Part shown: one piece after another, positions 13,635 to 63,287 of the stretch
Layout: the number at the start of each line of letters is the position of its first letter
Position numbering within the stretch: the first letter of the stretch is position 1
NCBI RefSeq assembly: GCF_040436345.1
Contig: NC_133218.1
Coordinates: 9,903,539 to 9,967,538 of the forward strand
DNA: 64,000 bases
Reading direction: 5' to 3'
DNA from: Pagrus major
Lineage: Eukaryota > Chordata > Actinopteri > Spariformes > Sparidae
Made by a program: the position numbers and the translations under genes
The notes under the pieces: generated by a model
Told to the model about the DNA's origin: nothing
The model's input: only the letters and a program-made list of their open reading frames with translations
Databases searched by the model: none

Positions 13635-14779
13635 CTAAGTGCTGTATCGTAGGAAACTGGACGTGTTTCAGTTTCTTCAAGACGTTTCACCTCTCATTCA
13701 AGAGGCTTCTTCGGTTCTACTGGAGGGGAGTTGCAGGCTTAAAACTCTGTCTACATACCTGAACCAGTGGCTAGGAGCATTTCCTGTTAAGGTAATCAAG
13801 GCTCTGCTCTCAACTGCTTCCATGTAGAGGATGGCCACTACAGCCGTGCTTCTATCTGTAGAAACCTTCACTGTACCGGAAGTAGGTGGTCGTCAGACAG
13901 AGGTCAGGTAAGGCACAAATGTGGTCTGGAACGAAGTTGGTTCTGCTTGACAGAGTGCTGACCTCTAAAAGATCCAAAACAGACAGTGAGGAGACAGAAA
14001 AATGTAACAACATTGTCATTCCTTATGTCGCGGGAATATCTGCAAAACTCAATGAACATCATATCCCAGTTCACTTCAAACCTACCAACACACTGAGGCA
14101 GAAACTTGTCCATCCAAAGGACAAAACGCCCAGGCATAAACAGAGTAATGTAGTTTATGCTGTTCAATGCAGCCAGGACTGCACAGATTTGTACATTAGG
14201 GGGACAAAACAAAAACTTCTCCATAAACGAATGGTACAACACAGGAGGGCCAACTCCTCAGGTCAAGACTCTGCTGTCCACTTACATCTGAAGGAGACAA
14301 ATCATTCCTTTGAGGACAACAATGTAAACAGAGAAGACAGATGGTTTGAAAGGGGGGTGTAAGAATCCATCAATGTCAAACTGGAACGACCGTCTTTCAA
14401 CAGAGGAGGTGGCCTAAGACATTATATAACACCCATCTCCAATGAAGTACTGTGTTCCCTCCCTAGACATCTTAACAACCATTCAGACCTGGGCTCACCT
14501 AGCCCTAGCAACCCATGCGAAGGCCAGTTGGGTCAACGACCCACACGTGGCCCTAACGACTCTGAAACTCAGAGCTCACACGTGTCCTTAACGACTCTGT
14601 AAGGACACTCCCACACAGAGTTTAAAAGCCTGCAACTCCCCTCCAGTTAGTTAGAACTGAAGAAGCCTCTTGGATGAGAGGTGAAACATCTTGAAGAAAC
14701 TGAAACACATCCAGTTGCCTACGATACAGCACTTAGAATTACCATGACCTGGATGACTGAGAACATCACCTTCATCAAC
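13635..14779 (+). mobile_element. Penelope-like retroelement, 5'-truncated
   Basis: This 1,145-bp insertion lies between two exact 13-bp direct repeats. The two ends (about 13,636-13,760 and 14,615-14,745) are long imperfect inverted repeats of each other, with words such as 'ctgtatcgtaggaaactgg' against 'cagttgcctacgatacagc'. Between them lies the C-terminal endonuclease part of the element protein. Penelope-like elements are known for terminal repeats in inverted arrangement, a GIY-YIG endonuclease C-terminal to the reverse transcriptase, and variable target duplications; all three are seen. The reverse transcriptase itself is missing, so the copy cannot move on its own. Confidence 0.8.
13886..14362 (+). 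pseudogene. Penelope-like element protein fragment with GIY-YIG endonuclease domain
   Basis: The open frame encodes the linker and the GIY-YIG module: VVYAVQCSQDC, then LYIRGTKQKLLHKRMVQH, and further on HLKETNHSFEDNN and DRWFERGV. In the family the YIG motif is usual; here it reads YIR, so a conserved glycine is replaced. The cysteine pair before it (C..DC) is typical of the fish subgroup. The upstream reverse transcriptase is absent and the frame stops at 14,360-14,362. The next codons (14,363 onward) read like a decayed continuation of the same domain. The fragment is a relic, without expected function. Confidence 0.75.
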
Positions 14780-27189: not shown

Positions 27190-27503
27190 CTACGTGCCAT
27201 CATAAACACAGATACAGCCATGCAAGCGAGCTGCTTCGGGCAAATCTCTGACTAAGTCCCATGTATCTGTGTGAGGGTCATATTTCTCCATGCTCTGCAG
27301 ATAGGTCCCTTTGAAGCAGGAATAGCCCCCAGTGACGTACACACAGCCCAGCATGGCCACCGCCCCGCACTCTATCCACCTCTCCTCCATGCTGGCAAGC
27401 AGGATCCATTCCTCTGTGTCTGGGTCGAAGCGTTCAGCGAGGGTGGTCTGGCCCCCTACCAGGTACAGGCTGCTGTTGAAAGACACCAGGCACATCCCAT
27501 ACT
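27190..27503 (-). pseudogene. klhl23: klhl23 exon 6 (last kelch repeats), open
   Basis: EYGMCLVSFNSSLYLVGGQ, later ERWIECGAVAMLGCVYVTGG and SMEKYDPHTDTWDLV, ending CICVYDGT and a TAG. This is the best-preserved exon and matches the KLHL23 C-terminus closely, including the GGYSxxKGTYLQS segment. Confidence 0.88.
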
Positions 27504-27703
27504 CTGCAGGGAGCAGCGACATGACAAGAACCGGGTTTCAATCCGAGCATTTGTATGTAAATATAGATTAACTGAATTATACAGGATAACTTGGAAACTA
27601 ATTTCGGTGTTCCGTCATTCTGAATGTACAATCAGGATCAGGTGTCGTTTTACCCTTGAGAACTTGTTAACTTATTTTAATTAGATTTTGTATTCAGAAC
27701 TAC

Positions 27704-27856
27704 CTGGATGGGGTCAAGTGGTTAGGATACTCCACTGGTCTATGTCCACTTTGTATCTCTGGATCTTGTTGTAGCTACAGCTGCCCTTGAAGCCATAATT
27801 ACCACTGGCTTCATAGATGTTGCTTGCCAACACAGTAGCTGAGGCGTTCCCTACCC
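27704..27856 (-). pseudogene. klhl23: klhl23 exon 5 (kelch), with stop codon
   Basis: VGNASATVLASNIYEASGNY then GFKGSCSYNKIQRYKVDID, followed by QWSILTT, a TGA at 27,714-27,716, and PHP. The GG doublet after IYE is lost. The acceptor is ttttacag, the donor CATCCAG|GTAG. Confidence 0.8.
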
Positions 27857-27994
27857 CTGTAAAAAGAGACAGGATCATGTTGATTAATAGGAATAATCTG
27901 ACAAGGATTATTCACTTTATAAGATACACGAGAAGATTGATAGCACTCTAATGTCATATACTGTACATCCAAACATAATATGATATACATGATA

Positions 27995-28130
27995 ATATGG
28001 CTAGAGTCAGCATCCAGTTAGCTTAGCTTTGTAGGCTATGACAATTACATTCTGACTCCGTCCAAAGGTAATAAAACCTTTCTTCCAGCACCTCTATAGC
28101 TGAGTAATTAGTAATTATTAGTAATTATTA
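27995..28130. repeat. Dispersed fish repeat, family C copy (klhl23 intron)
   Basis: 'agttagcttagctttgt', 'ctgactccgtccaaaggtaa' and 'ccagcacctctatagctga' match the copy at 42.33-42.50 kb ('gctctgtccaaaggtaac', 'gccagcaccagtgaagct'). Confidence 0.5.
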
Positions 28131-29787
28131 AGTATTAGACCAATTCTTAGCTAGCTCTTTTCTTCTGTCTTACGTCTTTATGCTAACCTAAGATAAACAG
28201 TCAATCAAGAGCTTCACCATGGTCTTGGTTGTGATGTGTGACAATCTGTAAATGCTCATCAACTGAACATTTGCAATTTGGTACTGGTGCTCATGTGCTG
28301 CACTAAACATAATGCCTCATTTTTTGTTTTTTCTTCAGAACAGCAACAAATTCCCTGCTATACATTGAAACATACTTTTGTTTAGCTCAGGCACTAGACC
28401 CCTCTCTCTTTTAGCAACACTAATCCCACAGTTGCTTAGTTAGACACTATTCAGTTCTGCTAGCTACCTAGCAGTTAGCAATGGCTCTCTTTCCTTCTCT
28501 CTCTCCTACTCTCTTTCTCTGTGTGTCAATTCTTTGTGTGTCTATTTCTGATCCACCTTTAGTGATAGTGGTACATGTAATAATTTTGTTTATTTGCTGT
28601 GTAGAAGATGATGCCGATTTGGAAACACAGTGCTGCACAATGGAAAATCAATCATTAGCTGCTGTAGTTAGCCAGCCCTCAAATAATTATAAATAATTAT
28701 AATAATTATTAAAGCTCCTGAGTCTGTGTGAAGCATAATTCAACTAACGTCAAATAAGCTGTGTAGCAAAGCAAACTACCAATAACCTGACTACACAGCA
28801 ATCACAATAACACTCAAACAGTGAATAGACACATATATTGAACACATGTGCATTACATCAACCGAAATTTTTAAAAAAAGTCATGTTCTTAGCTGTGCTA
28901 TGCTATGCTGTGTGCTATCTTGGCCCAGTTTAACGTTACCAGTCTTTGAAAAAAAGGTGCTGGTGGTTCCTAAGATGATGAGCCAAGCAGAAGAATGGGT
29001 TGTAATCCCAATGTTGTAATCCCAATGTTGAACAGTGCTCTTCTTGGTGTGCAATGTCTGATGAAGAAGGTGGATGGAGGAAACTGGTTGCTCCTTTCCT
29101 TTGCAGGGATAGCAGCTTGGTGTTAACTTGCTTCGTGTTCCTTGGCTTGTGGAGTTAGCTGACAAGCTTAGCGTCGCAGCTGCTGGTGCTAACTGAGCTG
29201 GAATACTAGCTGGACCTTGTGTCGCTACCGTAGGGAGAAGTTCTGGGCCTTCTTGAACTGCAGCTGGCAGCTCTAAGAAGCTGTTGGGCCCAGAAGAATC
29301 CAGGAGAAGAGAACTAGGGGCAGCCCAGTGGGAGAAGAGAGTGGAGAAGAAACAACAACAAAGGAAGGAGCTGGAGTTTTGACTCCTTGTCAGTGAGAGG
29401 TCTGTCACCCTGACCAATAGTATCTCAAAGCTGGGTCTCTTGGCAGTCTTTGCACCTAGTTGTTAAGACTGGGGAATTCTGTGGAACTGAGTCTGTTTTG
29501 AAATCCACAATGAAAAACTTCATCTGGATCCCAACAAGACTTGCAGACTAGACACACTGGATGCATGTGCAGCGCCGCTACGTGGCGCTACCTCTCGCTT
29601 TTCATTTCGGCGTCAATGTTAACAGGTTAGATCATTCACACTGGATGCCTGAGCCGAAAGCAATTTGAAAGGCGTCATATAAATGCAAGTACATTTACCA
29701 TTACAACAAATTATGAAATCTACATAAAGCAACACAATACACAGATGTAAAACATGCTGTTTTATGTGTGACATACTTGAAACACAC
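28131..29787. other. klhl23 intron 4, no gene seen
   Basis: A 178-codon minus-strand frame (28,881-29,417) is present, without recognisable domain; its upstream part is low-complexity 'ttagctg' and 'gctggtgctaac' repeats, so it is probably chance or repeat-derived. Around 29,550-29,690 the word 'cacactggatgc' occurs twice, and 'gcgtcatataaatgcaagt' resembles a LINE tail. Confidence 0.45.
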
Positions 29788-29925
29788 CTTGCACCATATC
29801 AGCTACAGCCGTCCACCTCCCTCCTCAGTGGATCAAACACTTCAGTCTGTGGTAGTGCTGAACCTCTTTTGTAGCCTCCCATAACATGCACACAGACACA
29901 ACAGGCCATGGAACAGTGGTAGTAC
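29788..29925 (-). pseudogene. klhl23: klhl23 exon 4 (kelch), frameshifted
   Basis: It reads YYHCSMACCVCVHVMGGYKR and ALPQTEVFDPLRRE, then after a frame change near 29,820 WTAVADMVQ. The sequence is too short for an independent open frame and was found by joining splice phases. The donor is CAAG|GTGTG. Confidence 0.78.
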
Positions 29926-30654
29926 CTGCAGGAGGTTTTCTCAACATTATTTTATATTTTATAAACCAAGTTCATACCAAGTTCAAACAGTATTGCTAAA
30001 ATAGAAATAAGCCCAAACTTTTGCATTGTGTGTTGTGAGCCTTATAAATTCAGATATATGATCAGTAATGCAGTGGTGGAGGTACATATACTTAAAGAAA
30101 ACAACAAAACAGTTTTGAAGTACTACCAAAAGATTATTTCCATTTCCCCTGAGAATTCCCATTTTATACCACTTTATACATTACATTTCAGACTGAAAAG
30201 CTACTTTTGACTCGATGGATTTTATCTGAGAGCCTTTGTCCATATTTACTTTGAATATTCCAAATTTTAAAACCTAGCATTATAAAAAGTATTTCATATC
30301 AGCTCCACCTCAACTGGCTATAATAATATAGTATGTAACATTCTGACAGGGGTCTATCTCCATCATTGGTACTTTTTTTGTTTGTTTAGTATTGTTGAGA
30401 CACTAAAAAAAACTATCCAAGAAGAGTATGAGTAACAGATCCTAGATACAGAGTTGGGTGATAATCCTCTGTGGGGTCATCACTTTCAGCAACCCCTTTC
30501 ACATTACAAAAAGTTATTTGATCCATTTTATATGAAATATTGATTAAAGCAGCTTCAATTTAAGACTCATGCCCAGAAACCCGGTGCCTAATCCCATCCC
30601 TTAAAGAATGGTGTCAATCAAAAGCACATCTGACATTATATTTGATCAACGTAC
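29926..30654. other. klhl23 intron 3
   Basis: Noncoding; no element end is recognised. Confidence 0.5.
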
Positions 30655-31165
30655 CTGGCAGTCAACATGGGCTGCCCTTCAGTCCAGTAGTCAGAATCAA
30701 TGTTGTACTCCCACACTGTATCCAACACCTCAGTGCTGTTGGTTCTGTATCCCCTGCTCACATAAATGGTACAGCCCAGTAAGGTCACTGCATAGCTCTC
30801 CTTGGAGTGATCGGGCATGTCTTCACCCTGCATCCACTCCCCACTGGACAGGTCCAAGCGCTGAACCTCAGACAAAGGACGCCAATGGTAGCCCCCAATA
30901 ACTATTACGGTGGAGCTGGATTTCATCCTAGTGACCGTCATGGAGGGCTGTTTGAACACAGGTGTTAGGGTGAATGTAGAAAGGAGGCTGTCAAAGTCAT
31001 TTTGCTGAAAGGAAAGATGTTTTGTTCGGAGTAGAGGGTCATGGTCCAGCCACCTGCCCACTGCCTCTGCCACTACTTCCTGTTTTTTCCTCTGCCAGGA
31101 GGACTGTCCTCAGGCTGTCAAGATCCAGTTCTAGAAATTCCTCTTCCTTGATCACCTCCTGAAAC
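30655..31165 (-). pseudogene. klhl23: klhl23 exon 3 (BACK end, first kelch repeats), frameshifted
   Basis: FQEVIKEEEFLELDLDSLR is followed, after a frame change in an A run near 31,082-31,090, by EVVAEAVGRWLDHDPLL and then the kelch segment IGGYHWRPLSEVQ and ESYAVTLLGCTIYVSRGYRT. The second kelch GG doublet is altered to RG. The exon ends in ...TARY at GCCAG|GTACG. Confidence 0.85.
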
Positions 31166-31486
31166 CTGCATCAAAGTGTTCAGAGTCAGCCCACCTGAAA
31201 TTAAATTACTTTGGAATCTTTTATAGAGAATAGAGTGACTTTGGCAATCATAGCTTATAGTGAAAAAAATCAATCATAGAGGAGAGTAGTTTATCATATC
31301 CTTTTGTCTGGTTTCTTCTGTTCATGTGAGAAATTTCCTAAGAGCCTCACCTTAATGACTGAATCACAGCACAGTGGAGAACTATTAGTGAGAAAAGTAC
31401 TACTCCGCTTTCATTTTGTCTTTGTTCCCATTTACAATTTAGACGCTGAAAAAGAAATCGCTAAATACAAAGAACTGATCTCTGAC

Positions 31487-31737
31487 CTGCCTGCAAGCAG
31501 CCTGCGGGCTTCCTTCTCCAGGATGTGGAGCTGAGAGAACGGCAGCATGCCCAAGCAGTTGTCCACACATCCAGCAGACGCACCAGGAAGACCTTGCAGG
31601 CCCTCTTCACCGCCCCAAACTGCAGCAGGTCAGCAGCCTTCAGCAAACTCCCCATGTTCAGCTGGGTTATGGTGAGTCTGGAGGAGTAAATATAGTCTAC
31701 CAACACTGATAAGACCTCCATCTCCAGGGCCGGCAGC
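31487..31737 (-). pseudogene. klhl23: klhl23 exon 2 (end of BTB, BACK), frameshifted
   Basis: It reads LPALEMEVLSVLVDYIYSS and SLLKAADLLQFGAVKRACK. After a frame change at about 31,563-31,569 it continues DNCLGMLPFSQLHILEKEAR. An apparent 2-nt gain (tg) explains the break. The acceptor lies directly at the end of the pentanucleotide array; the donor is GGCAG|GTCAG. Confidence 0.82.
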
Positions 31738-31740
31738 CTG

Positions 31741-31836
31741 AGAGGAGAGGAGAGGAGAGGAGAGGAGAGGAGAGGAGAGGAGAGGAGAGGAGAGGAGAGG
31801 AGAGGAGAGGAGAGGAGAGGAGAGGAGAGGAGAGGA
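31741..31836. repeat. (AGAGG)n pentanucleotide array serving as a polypyrimidine tract
   Basis: About 19 uninterrupted AGAGG units. Read on the minus strand they are CCTCT units that run directly into the CAG of the klhl23 exon 2 acceptor (31,740-31,738), so the array occupies the splice-site pyrimidine tract. Confidence 0.93.
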
Positions 31837-32730
31837 GTTATGAAATGTAGAGGGGCCATTCTAAGGATTACCAAGATAAGGGGAAGTTTACCCTTTCCTC
31901 ACTGTCATTTGACTGTATCATTTTTAATGGGATAAATAGGGACTTCAGAAGAGATACCAGCAGGCAATGTAGCAGCAAGTGCATGGAAGGAAGATCTACC
32001 ATTGGCCAATTACAACAGCATATGATAAATATGATGTCTAATTCAGTGTGAACTATACTTTGTCTAAAAGCCCTGTAATACACACATTATCACCATATAT
32101 ACATCGCCTAAATGTCTTACTTTATTTGGAAAAACTTTTTCATTCAATTTATTGTCCCTAAGGTATTAAAATGACTTCAATAGCTATACAAGTGGTGGTC
32201 TTGATATAAAGAATACTAAATCAAGGGGAGTCTCGCGCTTTATTTTTTCATGCCATAACTTATTTTGGATAGCCTCATGCATTCAGCATAACTTTGACTC
32301 CTTAACATTCCAGACAGTCATTTCTGCCACAGGTAGCCTGGTACCTGCTGCAGGGATCAGATTTTTACCTCAGGATGTTTTTTTTCCCGAAGTGATGTTT
32401 ATGTTAAAGTCTCCCTCGACTCAAAAATGTGTTTTTCTTATTGCGACTTGAGATGTTTGGGCTTCCCTGTGCAGAATGCTGTAGTGTGTGCATGGTTGCA
32501 GACTGGAAAGCTGAGGAAAGTTTCTCTGACCTCACCTTAAATCTGATTTGAAGACGTGAACAAACAAGCATGATTTTGTGACATTATGATCCAACATGCA
32601 ACTCGAAGGGTAACTTGACGTCAGGCTGAAAAACAGTGTTATGCTGCCCTCCCTGGTTGAAAGTTTCAAGCGTCTGTCACCTCTGTTGTCTGCTCTGTTG
32701 AACTTGTGGCCACACCCACCCAACAGTGAT
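31837..32730. other. klhl23 intron 1, distal part
   Basis: AT-rich; no gene or element end recognised apart from the adjoining hAT element. Confidence 0.45.
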
Positions 32731-32738
32731 GTCACAGG
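32731..32738. other. Target-site duplication, left (hAT element)
   Basis: gtcacagg is repeated exactly at 34,102-34,109. Confidence 0.8.
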
Positions 32739-33887
32739 TAGGGTTGCCACACGTCTCGTAAAATACGGAATCGTCCTGTATTTTACACTTAAATGTTGCG
32801 CCCTGTTTTGATTCAATACGGGCTGCGATTTGTCCCGTATTTCCAAGTTGCCTTGAACGCAGCATCATCTGACCCAGATTTAGCTTCTTAAAGTTACCAC
32901 CCGCCTACTCATAGGTTGGTTTGGTTGGTTAGTTTTAGGCATGAGGAATGAGAGATCATCAGTGATAGGGTGAGAGAGTCCCCACTGGCTGTCTCCAGTG
33001 GGGACATGTCTGCAGCTGCCCCAAGGACATTTTATTGCATCGGGCTGCCCCCGATACTCCGCCCCGTGCACCACTCAAACGAAAATGGATGCAGAAATAC
33101 AAATGTTAGTGGGAAGATTCAAATTCTTGGCTTTCCCGCAGTATAGGGACAGACAAAAACCAAACAGCAGTCTCACAGTTCTTCGTATCCCAAGCATCTC
33201 CTGAGGCTCAAACTGTAAGCTTCTTAATCACTTCTATGGTGGGACATCACGTTCTGTTCAGATTATATTTAATTTCTGGCTGTCTTTACTTGCAAATAAA
33301 TGAATCACATCACATACAAGGGACTGATGTCCTGGTTAAATCTCAGTCCCTAAGGTGGGCTGCCCTAACGTGGACTGGCCTCAATAATAGGTTATGTGAT
33401 GCATAAACACTGATTGATTTAAATATGAATCAATATAAATGTGCTGCCCTTAATGTGAAGAAAATACACAATTATTATACATTATTAAGTAATGCTTTAT
33501 CAATCTGGAAAATTGCATCCTTCAGTATTAATGAATCAGCAGTATAAAATGTTAAAAATAAATCTACCTACAATAGTGTTTCTCAGATGTATGTAAATAG
33601 CCTATCTAAGATCTAAGGCTATTTCTGTGTGGTTTCACTTTTGGATTGTGTGACTACTTTTCAGTACATAAGACAGGCAGCTGACAATTATTTTAGCCAA
33701 ATCTGTGTTCACACTATGGCCTGGGAAATATATCATCAATACAACATCAATATATTGTCAATAGACATGTAATATTGATAGTATCATTCATGATTTCATC
33801 AAAAAACAACAAAGACAGAAAGAAGGAAAGAATAAATTAAAAAATACTATAAAATTCATACTGTTTACTGTAATATGGCAATTAAAT

Positions 33888-33919
<32 letters not shown>

Positions 33920-34101
33920 TCATTAAAAATCTGTCATCCTAGTGTTAACACAGTTGTACATTATGATTTACCACAACTGGCGCTCCACCCCACCCTTGGG
34001 CCAGTAGTGGTTGGGCCCCTGTTGAGTGGCACCCCTGCCAGAGCGACGCCCCCACTGCTGGGGGTGTCCTCTATTTTGCAGCTTGGAAGGTGGCAACCCT
34101 A
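32739..34101. mobile_element. hAT-type nonautonomous DNA transposon, complete ends
   Basis: The left end is TAGGGTTGCCAC and the right end GTGGCAACCCTA, a perfect 12-bp terminal inverted repeat. It is flanked on both sides by the exact 8-bp duplication gtcacagg, the signature of hAT integration. The 1,363-bp interior begins with 'aaaatacggaatcgtcctg' and similar CCCGTATTT palindromes, contains a (TTA)n run at 33,887-33,914, and has no transposase frame. The element lies in klhl23 intron 1. Near-perfect ends suggest moderate age. Confidence 0.8.
33887..33914. repeat. (TTA)n microsatellite
   Basis: Eight to nine TTA/ATT units. Confidence 0.85.
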
Positions 34102-34109
34102 GTCACAGG

Positions 34110-35180
34110 GTCCCTGAGTATACTTCAGCATGTAGCAAAACTTTTATTTAAACGTAAACGCTAGTGCCCCAAGCACATCGTCCAGTCTGCCTTTGTGATT
34201 TGGTAGGGTTTATATAAACCCTCGCAATGTACCTCAAGGCCTGTTGCACACTGTCACAAAACGTTTTGAGGAAACTTCTTAATCATCCCAGAAACTCTAG
34301 CAAAATGGCGCATACCATTTTCAGATTGCATGTGCCCCTTCACAGCAGCAGGGTGAAAAACAAACCACTGGAGGTCAGCAAAGACAAGATTTTCAGGGAA
34401 TGTGAATTAGAATACTTTATTAATCCCTGGGGGGGAAATTGTTTTTGTTCCAGATGCTCAGTGCAAAGTAGAAATAGAAAAGAAGAAATAGATAGGTAGA
34501 TAGTTAGGATACTCTTTAAACCAGTATTCTACAGTCCTGCAATTCGTTGCACCAGCTATGCGCAAGTTCAAATGTAGCCTAGTATGAATGTCATTTCCAA
34601 TTTTTACGTACTACTAACATTTTAAGGGATGTACTAACTAAAATGGTTCCAATGTAGGTAGTAAGTTACAACTTCAATCTTACATCTGGCCCTCAGTAGG
34701 TGTAAAAATCTACCATCAAGTTACCAACAGTTTCAATCATTTTGAAAGATGGGATGGGAGGAGCAGATTTTAGTAGCTGTTTTGCGTCTAAATTTGACAT
34801 TAGACACCAACGTTATAGTGTTGGCAAGCAAATGTATGGGGTTAGATAACTTTCTAATTATCAACTAGCTAATAATTTATGACAGTTTGCAAATGTAGCT
34901 TAGGTTACAACTTCATCTGCCCAATAATAGAGCATCATTATTTTACATTCACATTCCTCACTGTTGTTGTTTGTTGATTAAGGGTATTAAATTGAATTTA
35001 CAATCAGCCGTAGGCCTTTTCAAAGACTACTGGGCATGAGAGACAACACAGTAATAAACAATGCATTAAGAATAGAGCTTTGACTGATTAGCAGCAGTGA
35101 AAACGTCATTTTCTGTCACAATGTTTGGTTGGTTTGGCCGTCACACCAGAGTAGTTAAGATGAACCTAGCAGGTGCAATG
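34110..35180. other. klhl23 intron 1, with a LINE-tail-like segment
   Basis: At about 34,395-34,505 the words 'aatactttattaatccctgg' and 'gggaaattg' followed by GATA-rich units resemble a common fish non-LTR tail. The remainder is AT-rich with no gene. Confidence 0.4.
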
Positions 35181-35184
35181 GGCC

Positions 35185-35350
35185 ACTGGTCCTCAGGGCC
35201 CCCTGCACTACATGTTTTAGATGTTTCTTTGCTCCAACACACCTGATTCAAATTCAAATGAACTCGTCATCAAGCTCTGCTGAAGCCTGATAACGACCCA
35301 TTCATTTGAATGAGGTGTGTTGCAGGGCAGGGGGCCCCGAGGATTAAAAA
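35185..35350. repeat. Palindromic fish repeat
   Basis: The left arm 'cagggccccctgcactacat' and 'acacacctgattcaaat' mirrors the right arm 'atttgaatgaggtgtgttgc' and 'gcagggggccccgagg'. The stretch folds into a long imperfect hairpin of a type common in fish genomes (a MITE-like sequence). No coding capacity. Confidence 0.55.
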
Positions 35351-36160
35351 ACACAGCTTTAAAGAAATGCGATGTGGAAGTCTCCAGCACACTTCCATAT
35401 CAGTATGGCCTGTGTGAGAGCGAGAGCAAAACTTGCCAAAGGTATCACCTTGTTTTAACACAGACAATAACTGAAACCATATATAAATATTCAGTTGGAA
35501 AGGTTGAGATATTGACTATTCCCCCAAGTGCAGCTGAAGTCCATTAAGGACTAATCAGGTCATCCACATTCTTCCCAATAATTTCATCATGGGGGGCAAT
35601 ATGGGAGAAAAATGACCACAGTGGTTACTTGCAGCCATTTCCCTTCAATAACCAGCTCCCCTGTCAACTATTACCATCTGGTCGGGCAGAAAACAAGACC
35701 CTGGCTATATCACGTTGGCTTCAATGGTTTTTGTGATAATTTATTGATCCCTTGAAGAGTCTTTCCTCTCTTTTCTCCTTCCCCCCTCTTGTACAGGGAG
35801 GTCAGAGGTCAGGGAGAGCTGGTGAGCAGCACTGCTGGAGGTGGCAGGGCTTCATTGTCTCTCTAAAAGACCGTACAGCTCAGCAGATGTTTGCCAATAT
35901 GAGCAACACGGGACATGAACCAAGGTTGTCCACTTGAATGACAGCCTTTAAATCACTAAATCATTAAAGTTGCAGGATGTCCTCGCACTGTAACTAAATG
36001 CCAGCTATGTGTTCATGATGCTGTGAGCCACAATATGAACCAGTATACTGCTGTCTGTGCTGTTATTATTTTGCCATGAATTCATATTTCTTATTGATGC
36101 ATTTAACATTGCCCTAAGTGCTCATCCATACACATTTGCACAAAAGATACTCATACACAC
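35351..36160. other. klhl23 intron 1, proximal part
   Basis: No element or exon recognised. Confidence 0.4.
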
Positions 36161-36400
36161 CTGACGAGGCTATTGGTCCTCTCCATCATGTCCGCAGTGA
36201 ACATATGAGCTGCAAGCACACAGTGCCACCTTGTGACCAGTGACCGGAAGAGCACTGCAGGGCGGTGTCCGTGAAGAGACCTTCAGAGTAGAAGTCTCTC
36301 AGGGCATCCAGCACCTCCTCAGGGTGGCTCGTCGTGGAAGTCATACACGTAGAGATCTTGGGATCCCCTGGGTGACACGGTTGTTGTCTGTCTGTGGCAT
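36161..36400 (-). pseudogene. klhl23: klhl23 exon 1 (BTB part), frameshifted
   Basis: One frame reads QDLYVYDFHDE, another continues SHPEEVLDALRDFYSEGLF then TDTALQCSSG, and a third gives HCVLAAHMFTADMMER. Together these follow the KLHL23 BTB start, with two frame changes and loss of several residues around the HRAVLAA segment. The donor is GTCAG|GTGTG. Exon 1 ends in phase 2, which fits exon 2. Confidence 0.8.
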
Positions 36401-43759: not shown

Positions 43760-44764
43760 CTAGATACTTGCTTTCAGTTCCTCGAGGATGTCAGTGCCGC
43801 TGCTCCAGGCAATGACTTTAGCCTTTAGAAAGGTGTTATCTTCCTGACCTTCCAGTTTGGCCAGCAGTTTCTCCAGGGTGTATCCCTTTCTGGGCATCGC
43901 AACATCGTGCCCTCTCAGACAGGAAGTAGGGCAGAGATCATTCCCACCATCCCCCACGTAAAATATCTGTTCGTACTCCACACCTGCATCAGACTGCCCT
44001 GACAAATACAGCTCCAGGACCTTTTTCTTGCAGAGGTTGACGGGGCATCGATCGCAGTCGTGAGAGTGGTAGCACTGTACCTCCATGTACCCGAGCTCGT
44101 TGAACTTAGCCGGGTTGGTGAAAACCTGATCGACAGCTGCCTGGAGTCCAGACGCATGGAGGATCCAGTCTATGAACATGGTGTTGGAGTCAGAGATGAC
44201 GATGCAATCAATGGTGCTTTTACGTTCCGATATGAATGTCAGCAGGTCCGTCATCCCAGCTGTGAAGGGGATGGTCTCCATCACACTGCGGACCCTGTCA
44301 GGGCTGACCTCCTGGTCTCCTGGACGCACAGACAGGAAAAAGGTCAGAGGACTGAAGAAAAAGCCGGTTGGAGGCAACAATAAAATGTTCATTTGCAAAT
44401 ATTTTTGCCACTATAGGTGGCCTACAAACAGGATAATGAATTCTCACCTATGTAGTTCATCACTCTGCCCATGAACTCAGTCCAGTGGCCTTTTCTGTAG
44501 GATTTCTTCACAGAGTCAGGGAGAGTCTGACCTGGAAGGCATCTGGGAAGAGAGAAAACAAATAAAGATCCGCTGCAGATTAAGTGGCGACTTTTATACA
44601 TTTTGCAGCAGTAAAACATCCATACCTTACTTAACTTTAAGAAAATGCATTTTATAGTGATTAATTAATTGATTCAAGCAATATATTATTTACCTAATCA
44701 CCCAAGTGTCACTGTTGTCATCGACCACAGTGTGGTCAAAATCAAACACCATCAGAGTCTTCAT
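43760..44764 (-). CDS. phospho2: phospho2, HAD-family pyridoxal-phosphate phosphatase
   Basis: Three exons on the minus strand (44764-44694, 44542-44448, 44319-43760) join in frame with GT-AG introns into 241 codons plus TAG, exactly the length of human PHOSPHO2. The protein is a cytosolic haloacid-dehalogenase-fold phosphatase, described in vertebrates as acting on pyridoxal 5'-phosphate. Visible motifs: motif I FDFDHTVVDDNSD with nucleophile D8 and D10; motif II region VISDSN at about 97-101; a cysteine cluster CDRCPVNLCKK at 144-154; motif IV GDGGND at 178-183. The start at 44,764 puts the DxD motif at the usual place. It is transcribed away from syap1 and toward the klhl23 remnant, matching the human PHOSPHO2-KLHL23 order. 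All catalytic residues that can be judged are present; the gene looks functional. PHOSPHO1 is the alternative paralogue, but length, short N-terminus and neighbourhood favour PHOSPHO2. Confidence 0.93.
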
Positions 44765-53266: not shown

Positions 53267-54190
53267 TTAGATCTCCATGCCACAAAAAGCCTGCCAGACC
53301 TGGGAAGTGAACTGGGGGCCGCGATCCGAGACAATGTAAGAGGGGAGTCCATGGAGCCGGAAAACATGGAGGGTGTGCAGGTCGGTGGTCTCAGAGGCAG
53401 ATGGGAGCTTAACCAGGGGAATGTAGTGAGTCATCTTGGAGAAGCGATCCACTATGGTGAGAATAATGGCGTGTCCATCAGAGAACGGAAGACCAGTAAC
53501 AACATCCACAGCTATATGGGACCAACCTGGACGAATGGCCCCACTGTAACACCTCGGACCAGACCTCCTCTGGCAAGAATAGGCGGTTAGGTGGACCTGT
53601 ATCAGGGTCAGGGTAACTGTGTTGGGCCTCCCGCAGAATTGTCTCAATCTCCCAGGTAGTAGCTCCAATGATCCGGGGAATGAGTACAATGGGCTTGGGG
53701 TAAGCAGGAGTTGCATCAGAGGAGAAGAGGCAAGAGAGGGAATCTGGCTTTCCATTTTCGGGAGCCGGGACAGTAAGAGAGGGTGTAGTTAGAGCGACTA
53801 AGGAATCAATCAGGCTCAACTCCCACCAGTGAGCCTGGTGGGAGTTGAGCCTTCTGGCAGAGTGCGGGTAAAAACGGTTCTTGTGGTCCGTCCAAATGAG
53901 GAAGGGCTCCAGGGTACCCTCCAGCCAGTGTCGCCACTCCTGGAGAGCCAAGACCACTGCCAAAAGCTCTCTATTTCCTATGTCATAATTTCTCTCCGCA
54001 GGGGAGAGATGTCAGGTGAAAAAGGCACAGGGATAAAGCTTATGTGTAGTAGCATTACGCTGGGAGAGAATGGCCCCCACGTCGGAATCTGAGTCCTCCA
54101 CCTCTACCACGAACTGACAATCCGGGTCGGGATGCTGAAGGACAGGGGCGTGAGTGAATTGCATTGAACTGTCATAAGGGCGGTGAGGTG
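53267..54190 (-). pseudogene. gypsy RNase H and integrase remnant
   Basis: After the deletion the minus strand reads [20 protein letters not shown]-like RT/RNase H end, then LALQEWRHWLEGTLEPFL and WTDHKN (RNase H). It continues across frame shifts into the H2C2-like linker, and the integrase core [20 protein letters not shown] and [18 protein letters not shown]. The catalytic aspartates of integrase are visible but the third acidic residue lies beyond the truncation. Confidence 0.75.
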
Positions 54191-54202
54191 GCAGAGACAG
54201 GG

Positions 54203-54847
54203 CTAGTTCTTAAAGAACACAGTAGACAGATCATGGTATGCTGGCGGCACTAGAGACAAATCTGGGGGTTTAGGAGGGATGGAAGCAGATACCTTGACTG
54301 ATGTAGCGGCGGAGTGGAGACAGTGGGATTGGCAAAAGGTGCTCCAGCTGGAAATGGAGGCTGCAGTCCAGTCTATGTGGGGGTTTTGAAGACATAGCCA
54401 GGGGAGACCCAGTGTGACTGGGGCAGAGCGTGAGGGGATGACGAACAGCTGGAGACACACACGATGATTTCCAGAGATGAGTAAGGTGATGGGTACTGTG
54501 CGATGAGTAATGGTGGCCAAACGCCACCCATCTAGGGCAATTACCATTTTGGGGGTGTTGAGGGGTTCAATGGGGATGAGTGTCTGTTCAACCAGGGCAG
54601 AGTCAATGAAGCTGTCGTCAGCGCCAGAATCCATAAAAACATTAATGGGAATGGACTTACGTGACCACTGGAGGGATGCCGGAAGATTGATACGGACTGG
54701 AGGGCTGGAACTGGAGGAAGTCTGGCTCACCAATGTGCCCTCTTTCACTGGCAAACCGGTCCTTTTGGCAGAGCCAGGCAGAAGGCGAGGTAGTGTCCGG
54801 GCTGACCACAGTAGATGCACAGCTGGTTTGTAATACGGCGTAGACAT
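54203..54847 (-). pseudogene. gypsy aspartic protease segment
   Basis: The 214-codon frame carries INVFMDSGADDSFIDSALV, the D-S-G retropepsin active-site motif, and a downstream VTLGLPWLCLQNPHIDW signature typical of the fish gypsy protease-RT linker. It ends in a stop after [11 protein letters not shown], where the reverse transcriptase should follow but is deleted. Confidence 0.75.
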
Positions 54848-54857
54848 TCCTCAGGAG

Positions 54858-55696
54858 TCAAACGAGTTCTTCTCCCCTGCATTGGTTCCTCCAGGGCAGC
54901 AGGGGGAGCTCTGAGGATCCAGGAGGGACATGGGGAACTCCGAGGTGCTGGCAGAGACTGGGGGATCTGACTAGGGTTGGAGCTAGCTGGCCTACGACTG
55001 GTGGACGCTTTCTCTCTCTGTCTCTCCCTAAGACGATTATCCTATCGGATAACGAAATGAGTTGCTCAAGGGATGCTGGCTCTTCTCGAGAAGCTAACTC
55101 ATCATGTAAATTATCTGCAGATGCGGAAATCAATGGAGTAGGCTGCCACTGACTGGGAACCCTGGCGTAAGGGGAATAACCTACTTGCTGCCTCCAAGCC
55201 CTGTACCGAGTAATCAAAAACCCGCATCTCATTCACAAAAGTGACATGAGAGTCGAGAGCCCCACTCCCATAATGCTGTTCCCCACTGTGTTGCCTTCCC
55301 TCTCAACAGATTCATGGTATAAGCTATCTGTGACTTATCTGAAGCATAACTGGAAGGTTGTAAATTAAACACATGTGAACATTGTAATAAAAAACTACCA
55401 CAGGAACCAAGGTCTGAGTAATGTTCAGGAGGGGGAACAAAAGGTTCCTTGGCCAGGGGAGAAGGAGGTCGGGCTGAGTTTGTAGTAGGTGGATTACTCA
55501 CAGTAGCAGGTGTAGCTGAGGGGGGTGCAGGTGGCTGGGAGGCAAGCAGGTTGATTTGGTGGCCGAGGTGGGAGACATTGGAGCACAAAGGCTAGAGTGA
55601 TTCCATAACCTCCCGGAGCATATGCTCATGTTTTCCCAGGAGGATGCCTTGAGCGTTTAGAGCCTGGTGGAGGGATTCCGGATCCGCTGGGTCCAT
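54858..55696 (-). pseudogene. gypsy gag remnant
   Basis: Starts MDPADPESLHQALNAQG at 55,696, with a stop soon after HMLREVMESL. It continues with a proline-rich stretch ([14 protein letters not shown]) and the capsid-like [19 protein letters not shown]. The second part (55,232-54,858) is in another frame and ends in the zinc-knuckle/protease junction region. Several stops and shifts make it non-functional. Confidence 0.7.
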
Positions 55697-56503: not shown

Positions 56504-58281
56504 ATGGAGCTCCGACTGACTGATAATCTGAGGGCTGTGTTCATCTTGATCATCCTCCTCTCCTCAGGTAAGATAACCACAGTAGGGAAAAAAGCATCTT
56601 TTAGCCTCATATTATTCCAATGATGGCATTAATGCTAGTGACTGATTTACATGCAAATTAAACTTGTCGGTTACAATTATTCGACGCAGTTTTGACTGAT
56701 AGATTGAAACAAGGATCAATTAAACCTCTCTTTTTTTTCTTTTCTTTTTCACATTTTCATGTAAAACCTTTTCACAAGTTTCTGCAGCAACTTCACAAGT
56801 CCAACATCTTACTTTGAGCTCATTAGAATGTGTTTGCGAAAATCGGATTTTCCTTATTTAAAAACAAAAAAACAACACTCAGTCAAAACTGGATGAAATC
56901 AATCTTTTATGGTGAATGTGTTTTGTTGTGTGAGCTCATCTGTTTCTCAGTGGGTTTATGTGTGAAACTGCAGTGTTGTGACAGTTTTACATTCACAATC
57001 TCACAAAAAAGACTGCATTTTAAATGTTCCTACTTGTGTCTCTTTCAGGTTCAAGTGAAGACCCGGACTTTAACTTTTGTGGCACCTGGCTCCATGGCAA
57101 AGGCTCCCTGAGCGTCAATGTCAACCTGACCCCAGGCTGTAATGGGATTTCAATCTCAGCCAATGAGAGCTCTCTGTCCATCGATGGGCAGATCACAGCC
57201 AAATGCAAATGGTCTGATGTAATTCCCCTTGACAAGTTTGGTCTTGATTCATCAAAAGATAGTTACTTCTGTCTGTACTGGGAGCCGTTGCTGGACCAGT
57301 TGAAGCTGCAGGTAAATCAGGAACAGGAGGAAGGAGGCAATATGAGGGTTTATTGACCAGTATGTGTCCATGCAGCGGGTCATCACCTCTCACATCTAAA
57401 CACTATTATAACGTCATCTGTCATTCTTCAGTCTGGCTCAGTAATGAAAGTACTGAAAAGACAAGTACACTGTTTTCCTCTGATTACAAGTAATCATCAG
57501 TCTACAAAGTAGAAGGTTTGAAAACAAAACTAGGATCCTTTTTTGGGGGGGTATCTACAATATCAGTTCTGAAAGTGAAATAGTAAGCTGTTCTACAAAA
57601 ATGTGTGTACGTAAAATGTGTAAGACTCAGACGCAGAGTATATGACACAGCAGCTTCATGGCAGTCCTCATTAAAGAGCTTAATGGCCGATGTTTGTTTT
57701 TGTTTTGTTTTTGTCATATTTTGTTGTACAGGTCGGAGGACAGAACCTCACTCTGTGCTGGCCTGCCAGCCTACAGGGCTCCTGCTGCACGGATCTGGCT
57801 AATGGTGCAAACAAACCCAAGGCACTCTATGGCATCATCAATGCAATGGTCAAAACCGATATGCTCAGCCATGATATACGGACAGGCTACATTTTCAATG
57901 GAAGCCCCATCAACTGCAGTAAGAGAGAATGGATGTTGTCTGCACATCTGTAAATGGAATATGTTCAGAAAGAGAAACGTTTTTTGATTTAACCCATTAT
58001 ATTCTGTTTCAGTAAATCCAGTAAGATTTTCCACATTGATTGTTAACATTTCCTCTTGTGCAGTCAAACACACAATATGTTTGTAAGGATTACCTTCAAA
58101 ATAAAAGCATCAAAACTAGCCAGAAACCAAAATATGATACAAACAGACTTAAGAATCAGATTCTTATTTAAGTGTCAGAGTTTAGAGTTTGTATGTATAA
58201 TGGTTGTTTTAAAATGTATTTATTTTTTCAGGTGAGTTATGTGATCGAGCGGACCAGGAATCTACCCAAGTCAACATGTAA
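56504..58281 (+). CDS. GPR56/ADGRG-like N-terminal extracellular gene, ends early
   Basis: Four exons (56504-56567, 57049-57311, 57732-57918, 58232-58281) join in frame to 187 codons plus TAA. The start MELRLTDNLRAVFILIILLS is a signal peptide. Then DFNFCGTWLHGKGSLSVNVN, YFCLYWEPLLDQLKLQV and LTLCWPASLQGSCC match the order of the PLL-like domain at the N-terminus of adhesion receptor GPR56 (DFxFC ... FCLYW). Similar proteins recur in fish as ADGRG-type receptors. There is no GAIN domain or seven-helix region. Exon 4 could instead splice at AACAT|GTAATT just before the stop, but the next candidate exon then meets a TGA. So this is either a short secreted ectodomain or a truncated receptor gene. 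No exact orthologue can be named. Confidence 0.6.
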
Positions 58282-61728: not shown

Positions 61729-63287
61729 CACTGAACAAAAATATAAAAGCAACACTTTTGTTTTTGCTCCCATTTTTCATGAGCTGAACTCAAAGATCTA
61801 AAACATTTTCTAGATACACAAAAGACCATTTCCCTCAAATATTGTTCACAAATCTGTCTAAATCTGTGTTAGTGAGCACTTCTCCTTTGCCGAGATAATC
61901 CATCCCACCTCACAGGTGTGGCGTATCAAGATGCTGATTAGACAGCATGAATATTGCACAGGTGTGCCTTAGGCTGGCCACAATAAAAGGCCACTCTGCA
62001 ATGTGCAGTTTTGCTTTATTGGGGGGGGTCAGAAAACCAGTCAGTATCTGGTGTGACCACCATTTGCCCCATAGAGTTGATCAGGTTGTTGATTGTGGCC
62101 TGTGGAATGTTGGTCCACTCCTCTTCAATGGCTGTGCGAAGTTGCTGGATAATGGCAGGAACTGGAACACGCTGTTGTATACGCCGATCCAGAGCATCCC
62201 AAACATGCTCAATGGGTGACATGTCCGGTGAGTATGCTGGCCATGCAAGAACTGGGATGTTTTCAGCTTCCAGGAATGAATTGTGTACAGATCCTTGCAA
62301 CATGGGGCCGTGCATTACCACGCTGCAACATGAGGTGATGGTCGTGGATGAATGGCACAACAATGGGCCTCAGGATCTCGTCACGGTATCTGTGCATTCA
62401 CAATGCCATCGATAAAATGCACCTGTGTTTGTTGTCCATAACATATGCCTGACCATACCATAACCCCACCGCCACCATGGGCCACTCGATCCACAACGTT
62501 GACATCAGTTGACATCACGCTGTCTGCCATCTGCCCTGAACAGTGAAAACCGGGATTCATCCGTGAAGAGAACACCTCTCCTCGCCATCGAATGTGAGCA
62601 TTTGCCCACTCAAGTTGGTTACAAAGACGAACTGCAGTCAAGTCGAGCCCCCAATGAGGACGATGAGCATGCAGATGAGACGGTTTCTGACAGTCTGTGC
62701 AGAAATTCTTTGGTTATGCAAACGGATCGTTGCAGCAGCTGTCCGGGTGGCTGGTCTCAGACGATCTTGGATGTGAACATGCTGGATGTGGAGATCCTGG
62801 GCTGGGTGGTTACACGTGGTCTGCGGTTGTGAGGCTGGTTGGATGTACTGCCAAATTGTCTGAAACGCCTTTGGAGACGGCTTATGATAGAGAAATTAAC
62901 ATTCAATTCATGGGCAACAGCTCTGGTGGACATTCCTGCAGTCAGCATGCCAATTGCACGCTCCCACAAAACTTGCGACATCTGTGGCTTTGTGCTGTGT
63001 GATAAAACTGCACATTTCAGAGTGGCCTTTTATTGTGGCCAGCCTAAGGCACACCTGTGCAATATTCATGCTGTCTAATCAGCATCTTGATATGCCACAT
63101 CTATGAGGTGGGATGGATTATCTCGGCAAAGGAGAAGTGCTCACTAACACAGATTTAGACAGATTTGTGAACAATATTTGACAGAAATGGTCTTTTGTGT
63201 ATCTAGAAAATGTTTTAGATCTTTGAGTTCAACTCATGAAAAATGGGAGCAAAAACAAAAGTGTTGCTTTTATATTTTTGTTCAGTG
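61729..63287 (-). mobile_element. Tc1-like transposon, complete ends
   Basis: The 1,559-bp element begins cactgaacaaaaatataaaag and ends with its inverse, cttttatatttttgttcagtg, and is flanked by TA at 61,727-61,728 and 63,288-63,289. The terminal inverted repeats are about 280 bp long (61,729-62,012 and 63,002-63,287) and highly similar. TA duplication, long inverted repeats and a DDE transposase are Tc1/mariner signatures. The terminal words belong to a Tc1 group I know from many teleosts (and, reportedly, lampreys). High identity of the repeats points to a fairly recent insertion. Confidence 0.88.
62016..62981 (-). pseudogene. Tc1-like transposase, frameshifted
   Basis: The N-terminal DNA-binding part (62,981-62,757) reads MSQVLWERAIGMLTAGMSTR then AVAHELNVNFSIISRLQRR, a paired-type helix-turn-helix. 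The middle (62,641-62,381) has CNQLEWANAHIRW and VMVWSGICYGQQTQVHFIDG. The C-terminal part (62,363-62,016) has WPAYSPDMSPIEHVWDALDR, which includes the final DDE-motif residue. These three lie in different frames, with further deletions, so no active transposase is made. Homology to fish Tc1 transposases is clear. Confidence 0.85.

What the first reader, a model, noticed from the sequence alone, without database searches (positions are those of the whole stretch)
27190..36400. klhl23 is a unitary pseudogene with intact splice sites beside intact phospho2
Six exons align in order with KLHL23, and every intron keeps GT-AG ends and a fitting phase. The frame is nevertheless broken about five times and has a TGA in a kelch exon. 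The adjacent phospho2 and syap1 frames are perfect over 241 and 359 codons, which argues against poor sequence. In human, PHOSPHO2 and KLHL23 share read-through transcripts, so losing klhl23 while keeping phospho2 splits a linked pair.
Basis: partly seen in the sequence, partly recalled or inferred. Interest (0 to 1): 0.75.

Follow-up and report, generated by a model that had tools for sequence, protein, structure and literature searches.

The report
Dead second copy of fish klhl23
A fish carries a broken copy of the klhl23 gene, introns and all, next to an intact phospho2, but an intact klhl23 sits on another chromosome, so this is the ordinary loss of one of two duplicates rather than the loss of the gene.

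Summary
On the minus strand, 36400-27190, six klhl23-like exons lie in order with five GT-AG introns in fitting phase; the coding sequence has six frameshifts, a TGA and in-frame gaps of up to 21 residues. phospho2 beside it reads intact in three exons.

'Unitary' fails. The same genome holds an intact three-exon klhl23 on C9:18347812-18344454. Two trees put it and the window copy into two teleost clades, klhl23a (C9) and klhl23b (window), with gar and bowfin outside. They fit ohnologs of the teleost genome duplication, though the deepest forks are unresolved. Intact klhl23b is listed for some other fishes, so the loss is lineage-specific.

A side finding interests more: three introns of klhl23b fall inside one exon of klhl23a and were probably gained in the b lineage. 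Overall interest is low.

The parts
36161..36400 (-). klhl23b exon A (start of BTB; 5' end taken at the first ATG, not known): ATG out of frame, three frameshifts (about 36330, 36236, 36202), two 3-residue gaps
31738..36160 (-). intron A/B, 4423 nt, GT-AG; not in klhl23a
31487..31737 (-). klhl23b exon B (BTB and following): 2-base frameshift at about 31565, 3-residue gap at about 31521
   Evidence: BTB in Pfam
31166..31486 (-). intron B/C, 321 nt, GT-AG; not in klhl23a
30655..31165 (-). klhl23b exon C (to the first kelch repeats): frameshift at about 31083 beside a run of six A, 21-residue gap at about 31001
29926..30654 (-). intron C/D, 729 nt, GT-AG; not in klhl23a
29788..29925 (-). klhl23b exon D (kelch): frameshift at about 29819
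27857..29787 (-). intron D/E, 1931 nt; same place and phase as klhl23a intron 1
27704..27856 (-). klhl23b exon E (kelch): TGA at about 27716
27504..27703 (-). intron E/F, 200 nt; same place and phase as klhl23a intron 2
27190..27503 (-). klhl23b exon F (last kelch repeats), open to its TAG
43760..44764 (-). phospho2, intact, three exons, upstream of klhl23b on the same strand

Best explanation
This is klhl23b, one of two klhl23 copies that most likely go back to the teleost whole-genome duplication, inactivated fairly recently in this fish's lineage. The other copy, klhl23a on C9, is intact and presumably does the gene's work (KLHL proteins are, from general knowledge, substrate adaptors of Cullin-3 ubiquitin ligases; not tested here). 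klhl23b evolved fast. With klhl23a present, frameshifts, a stop and deletions could accumulate here. phospho2 stayed because, it seems, the surviving teleost copy sits at the b locus. Shown: two clades, intact a copy, lesions, altered conserved sites. Inferred: the genome duplication as source, the recency, and redundancy as the reason.
For: Intact klhl23a: start, three open exons, two GT-AG introns, stop, 560 codons, 79%, 80% and 86% identity by exon to Centroberyx klhl23a. Tree of 43 rows: the window with eight other percomorph b proteins (100/100), with Centroberyx_1 and Diretmus_1 added 11 rows (100/100). Tree of 28 rows: the C9 gene with Lates, Micropterus and Eleginops (100/100). Centroberyx, Diretmus and Salminus have one protein in each clade; gar and bowfin are outside both. 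Constraint: 13 of 180 KLHL23-invariant columns are changed in the window row, against 2 to 5 of 169 to 172 in each of nine b proteins; for columns invariant in the b rows alone, 21 of 285 against 3 to 11 of 267 to 275. Five of six frameshifts have no run longer than three bases within 7 nt, and gaps of 9 to 63 bases are not base-calling errors. phospho2 and klhl23b have one contig length in 5 of 5 species, phospho2 and klhl23a in 0 of 24.
Against: No reads or RNA were available; the frameshift at 31083 lies beside a run of six A. The age of the duplication is not settled: forks among the deep teleost lineages are open, the two Megalops proteins pair with each other (91/79) instead of one falling in each clade, bony-tongue proteins fall in neither, and the b stem holds long branches (Salminus_2, Hypomesus). 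Equal contig length is only a proxy. The broken allele could be polymorphic. A second phospho2 in this genome could not be sought, because the search did not complete.
Confidence: 0.92

Rival explanations
1. Unitary pseudogene: the fish has lost its only klhl23.
For: Frame broken six times and a TGA beside an intact neighbour.
Against: Intact klhl23a on C9, grouped with other fishes' klhl23a.
Confidence: 0.02
2. Assembly or sequencing error in an intact klhl23b.
For: One of six frameshifts lies beside a run of six A; reads could not be inspected.
Against: Five of six frameshifts lack long runs, gaps of 9 to 63 bases occur, and conserved sites are changed 2.5 to 6 times as often as in nine other b proteins.
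Confidence: 0.03
3. The broken gene still works as a non-coding RNA or as a short protein from exon F, perhaps through read-through from phospho2.
For: Splice dinucleotides are intact at all five introns, exon F is open, read-through transcripts of the pair are described in human (PMC5095152, passages), and two proteins listed (platypus P0110, Salvator P0119) carry both domains.
Against: Intact splice sites are expected if the loss is recent; no BTB frame survives; no expression data.
Confidence: 0.04

Closest known systems
Loss of one duplicate after the teleost genome duplication
   Same: One copy intact, the other decaying in place with its introns. PMC10179623 (passages) says that 75% of klhl members in Carassius lost one paralogue after that duplication and lists klhl23.1 and klhl23.2
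   Different: Here the dead copy is young enough to be read exon by exon
PHOSPHO2-KLHL23 read-through pair of human (PMC5095152, passages)
   Same: Adjacent genes, phospho2 upstream of klhl23 on one strand
Intron gains in teleost slc26a1 and slc26a2 (PMC12357937, abstract and outline)
   Same: Extra introns in a teleost gene relative to its relatives
   Different: Here in a duplicate that then died; whether other fishes' klhl23b share them is unknown

Membership tests
Unitary pseudogene | No functional copy of the gene elsewhere in the genome | tested here: not met
   Intact klhl23a on C9
Unitary pseudogene | Disabling lesions at the original locus | tested here: met
   Six frameshifts and a TGA
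Duplicated (ohnolog) pseudogene | An intact paralogue exists | tested here: met
Duplicated (ohnolog) pseudogene | Introns retained | tested here: met
   Five GT-AG introns
Duplicated (ohnolog) pseudogene | Duplication dates to the teleost genome duplication | tested here: inconclusive
   Two clades with gar and bowfin outside, but deep teleost forks open and the two Megalops proteins pair together; block synteny not examined
Processed pseudogene | Introns missing | tested here: not met
   Introns present
KLHL23 | BTB, BACK and kelch repeats of KLHL23 type | tested here: met
   Nearest named proteins are KLHL23; BTB and kelch, not BACK, were matched in the three klhl23b pieces scanned
KLHL23 | Acts as a Cullin-3 adaptor | not testable with these tools
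   Family knowledge only; no assay

The most novel reading that the evidence does not exclude
klhl23b gained three introns, all phase 2 at AG|G sites, inside one ancestral exon after the duplication, while klhl23a gained none there; the copy that took on introns and evolved fast is the one that died here and is missing from the listings of most acanthomorphs. If other klhl23b genes share the introns, this is a datable case of lopsided intron gain between two duplicates before loss.
Probability: 0.6. Interest if true: 0.35.

Novelty: new member of a known kind. Interest (0 to 1): 0.2.

Why it matters
It corrects a claim of gene loss: the fish keeps klhl23. It shows the trap of calling a pseudogene unitary without the rest of the genome. 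The locus is a readable case of late, lineage-specific loss of one duplicate next to a retained neighbour, with extra introns in the dying copy.

Tried and rejected
Considered and rejected: unitary loss (intact C9 copy); processed pseudogene (introns); an alternative splice pattern that restores the frame (exons A, B, C and D each hold a frameshift and E a stop, so no choice among these exons gives a BTB-kelch frame; argued, no RNA seen).

Tested, weak: direct repeats at the ends of the three extra introns. In-register runs of 5, 6 and 7 nt, against 3 and 3 at the two shared introns, looked like target-site duplications; a toy model with splice-site frequencies recalled from memory gave about 5e-5. 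But klhl23a intron 1, a shared intron, also gives 5, and the test was made after seeing the data. I give it little weight. blastn (filter on, E up to 1e-4) of the five introns found no other copy in the window or in 46 of the 48 loci held; the two left out lie in the window itself. A genome-wide search with intron C/D did not complete.

Against intron gain at the first place: at four loci (L003, L005, L006, L007) the match begins at residue 77, two residues before it, so these paralogues may have an exon start close by; the DNA looked to me like a start some codons further up, but I did not settle it.

Not done: dN/dS, reads, RNA-seq, species name, a second phospho2 in this genome, exon structure of klhl23 in other species, block synteny of C4 and C9.

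Full report
What is there. The window is a piece of a chromosome-scale contig of a fish genome (G000:C4:9903539-9967538; 785.9 Mb in 25 contigs). On the minus strand, klhl23-like exons A-F lie at 36400-36161, 31737-31487, 31165-30655, 29925-29788, 27856-27704 and 27503-27190, with five GT-AG introns in fitting phase. Aligned to intact proteins of Sebastes and Chaetodon, the same six frameshifts, one TGA and four in-frame gaps appear. The ATG at 36400-36398 is out of frame with the BTB frame; since the Chaetodon record starts upstream, I do not count it among the sure lesions. Five of the six frameshifts have no run longer than three bases within 7 nt; the sixth lies beside six A.

Constraint is relaxed. 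In 499 columns filled in ten b rows, 13 of 180 columns that are otherwise invariant in the KLHL23 rows used are altered in the window row, against 2 to 5 of 169 to 172 in each of nine other b proteins; five of the 13 replace a glycine. For columns invariant among b rows only, it is 21 of 285 against 3 to 11 of 267 to 275. My rough inference is a few per cent of neutral change since the loss; with so little, survival of all ten splice dinucleotides needs no special cause.

It is not unitary. A search of the genome with Centroberyx klhl23a found an intact copy on C9: codons 5-412 in one exon (79% identity), 407-461 (80%) and 459-562 (86%), no stops. The DNA gives a start, two GT-AG introns and a stop, 560 codons. 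One search found 258 proteins and listed 120. Ten clusters (24 member sequences) match the window at 61-77% identity: Chaetodon, Nibea, Morone, Pempheris, Sebastes, Sander, Centropristis, Centroberyx, Diretmus and a partial Etheostoma. By my reading of the names, about 50 acanthomorph clusters of the other type are listed, at about 46-52%. In the 43-row tree (42 of the 120 listed, chosen by me, plus the window) the b clade also takes in Hypomesus, Salvelinus and Salminus_2 (14 rows, 95/92), and the a clade has 17 rows (97/95). Centroberyx, Diretmus and Salminus carry both. Gar and bowfin lie outside both. In a second tree of 28 rows the C9 gene falls in the a clade and the window in the b clade.

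Limits of the dating. The forks between the a clade, the b clade, bony-tongues, Albula and Megalops are open, and the two Megalops proteins pair with each other. The teleost genome duplication is the likeliest source, by the two old clades and the separate chromosomes, but it is not shown.

phospho2. The neighbour reads intact in three exons, 93% identical to Symphorus in the long exon. Contig lengths give a linkage proxy. phospho2 and klhl23b have the same length in 5 of 5 species listed for both (Morone, Pempheris, Centropristis, Centroberyx, Diretmus). phospho2 and klhl23a have different lengths in 24 of 24 (Centroberyx, Diretmus, Polymixia, Channa argus, Mugil, Menidia, Melanotaenia, Pholidichthys, Embiotoca, Nothobranchius furzeri, Betta, Kryptolebias, Aulostomus, Paralichthys, Dunckerocampus, Phyllopteryx, Entelurus, Syngnathus scovelli, Odontesthes, Genypterus, Xenentodon, Siganus, Periophthalmus, Chanos). 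I matched these by eye from the two listings of 120, and left out species with no contig length in one listing (Semicossyphus, Scophthalmus, Fundulus), congeners, and Gadus, whose records come from different assemblies. A different length need not mean another chromosome where contigs are short. The human read-through transcript is described in PMC5095152 (passages), which says that only KLHL23 is translated from it.

Extra introns. klhl23a and klhl23b share introns D/E and E/F in place and phase. Introns A/B, B/C and C/D of klhl23b fall inside klhl23a's first exon, at klhl23a residues 79, 165 and 361. Fifteen other loci of this genome among those held match klhl23a across the first two places in one unbroken piece, and four of these across the third; one search lists no stop in them. 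Four further loci begin their match at residue 77, so an exon start near, though perhaps not at, the first place exists in some paralogues. Gain in the b lineage is the simpler reading; loss in klhl23a is not excluded, as no outgroup gene structure was in reach. Intron gains in teleosts are on record (PMC12357937, abstract and outline).

What is in print. Searches for klhl23 with pseudogene (10 papers, 9 listed), klhl23 with zebrafish (7), two of phospho2/klhl23/synteny (21, 10 listed) and klhl23b (0) gave no listing about this loss. PMC10179623 treats klhl duplicates and their losses in Carassius (passages). I call this a new member of a known kind, of low interest.

Noticed in passing
window 31738-31837: The acceptor end of intron A/B is a GAGAG-type simple repeat running straight into the AG of exon B.
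   Followed up: no
window 53267-55591, minus strand: Remains of a gypsy-like retroelement (RNase H and aspartyl protease matches in Pfam; the name gypsy is my recall).
   Followed up: partly
window 62016-62895, minus strand: Tc1-like transposase pieces (DDE_3 match in 62019-62369; the name Tc1 is my recall).
   Followed up: partly
window 13886-14602, plus strand: Open frames that reminded me of the GIY-YIG end of a Penelope-like element (recalled; the one piece scanned had no Pfam match).
   Followed up: partly
P0011 (Etheostoma spectabile): This klhl23b record lacks just about exon E and ends inside exon F: an independent decay or a poor gene model.
   Followed up: no
window 57024-57356, plus strand: Exon-like open frame without Pfam match, unidentified.
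   Followed up: no
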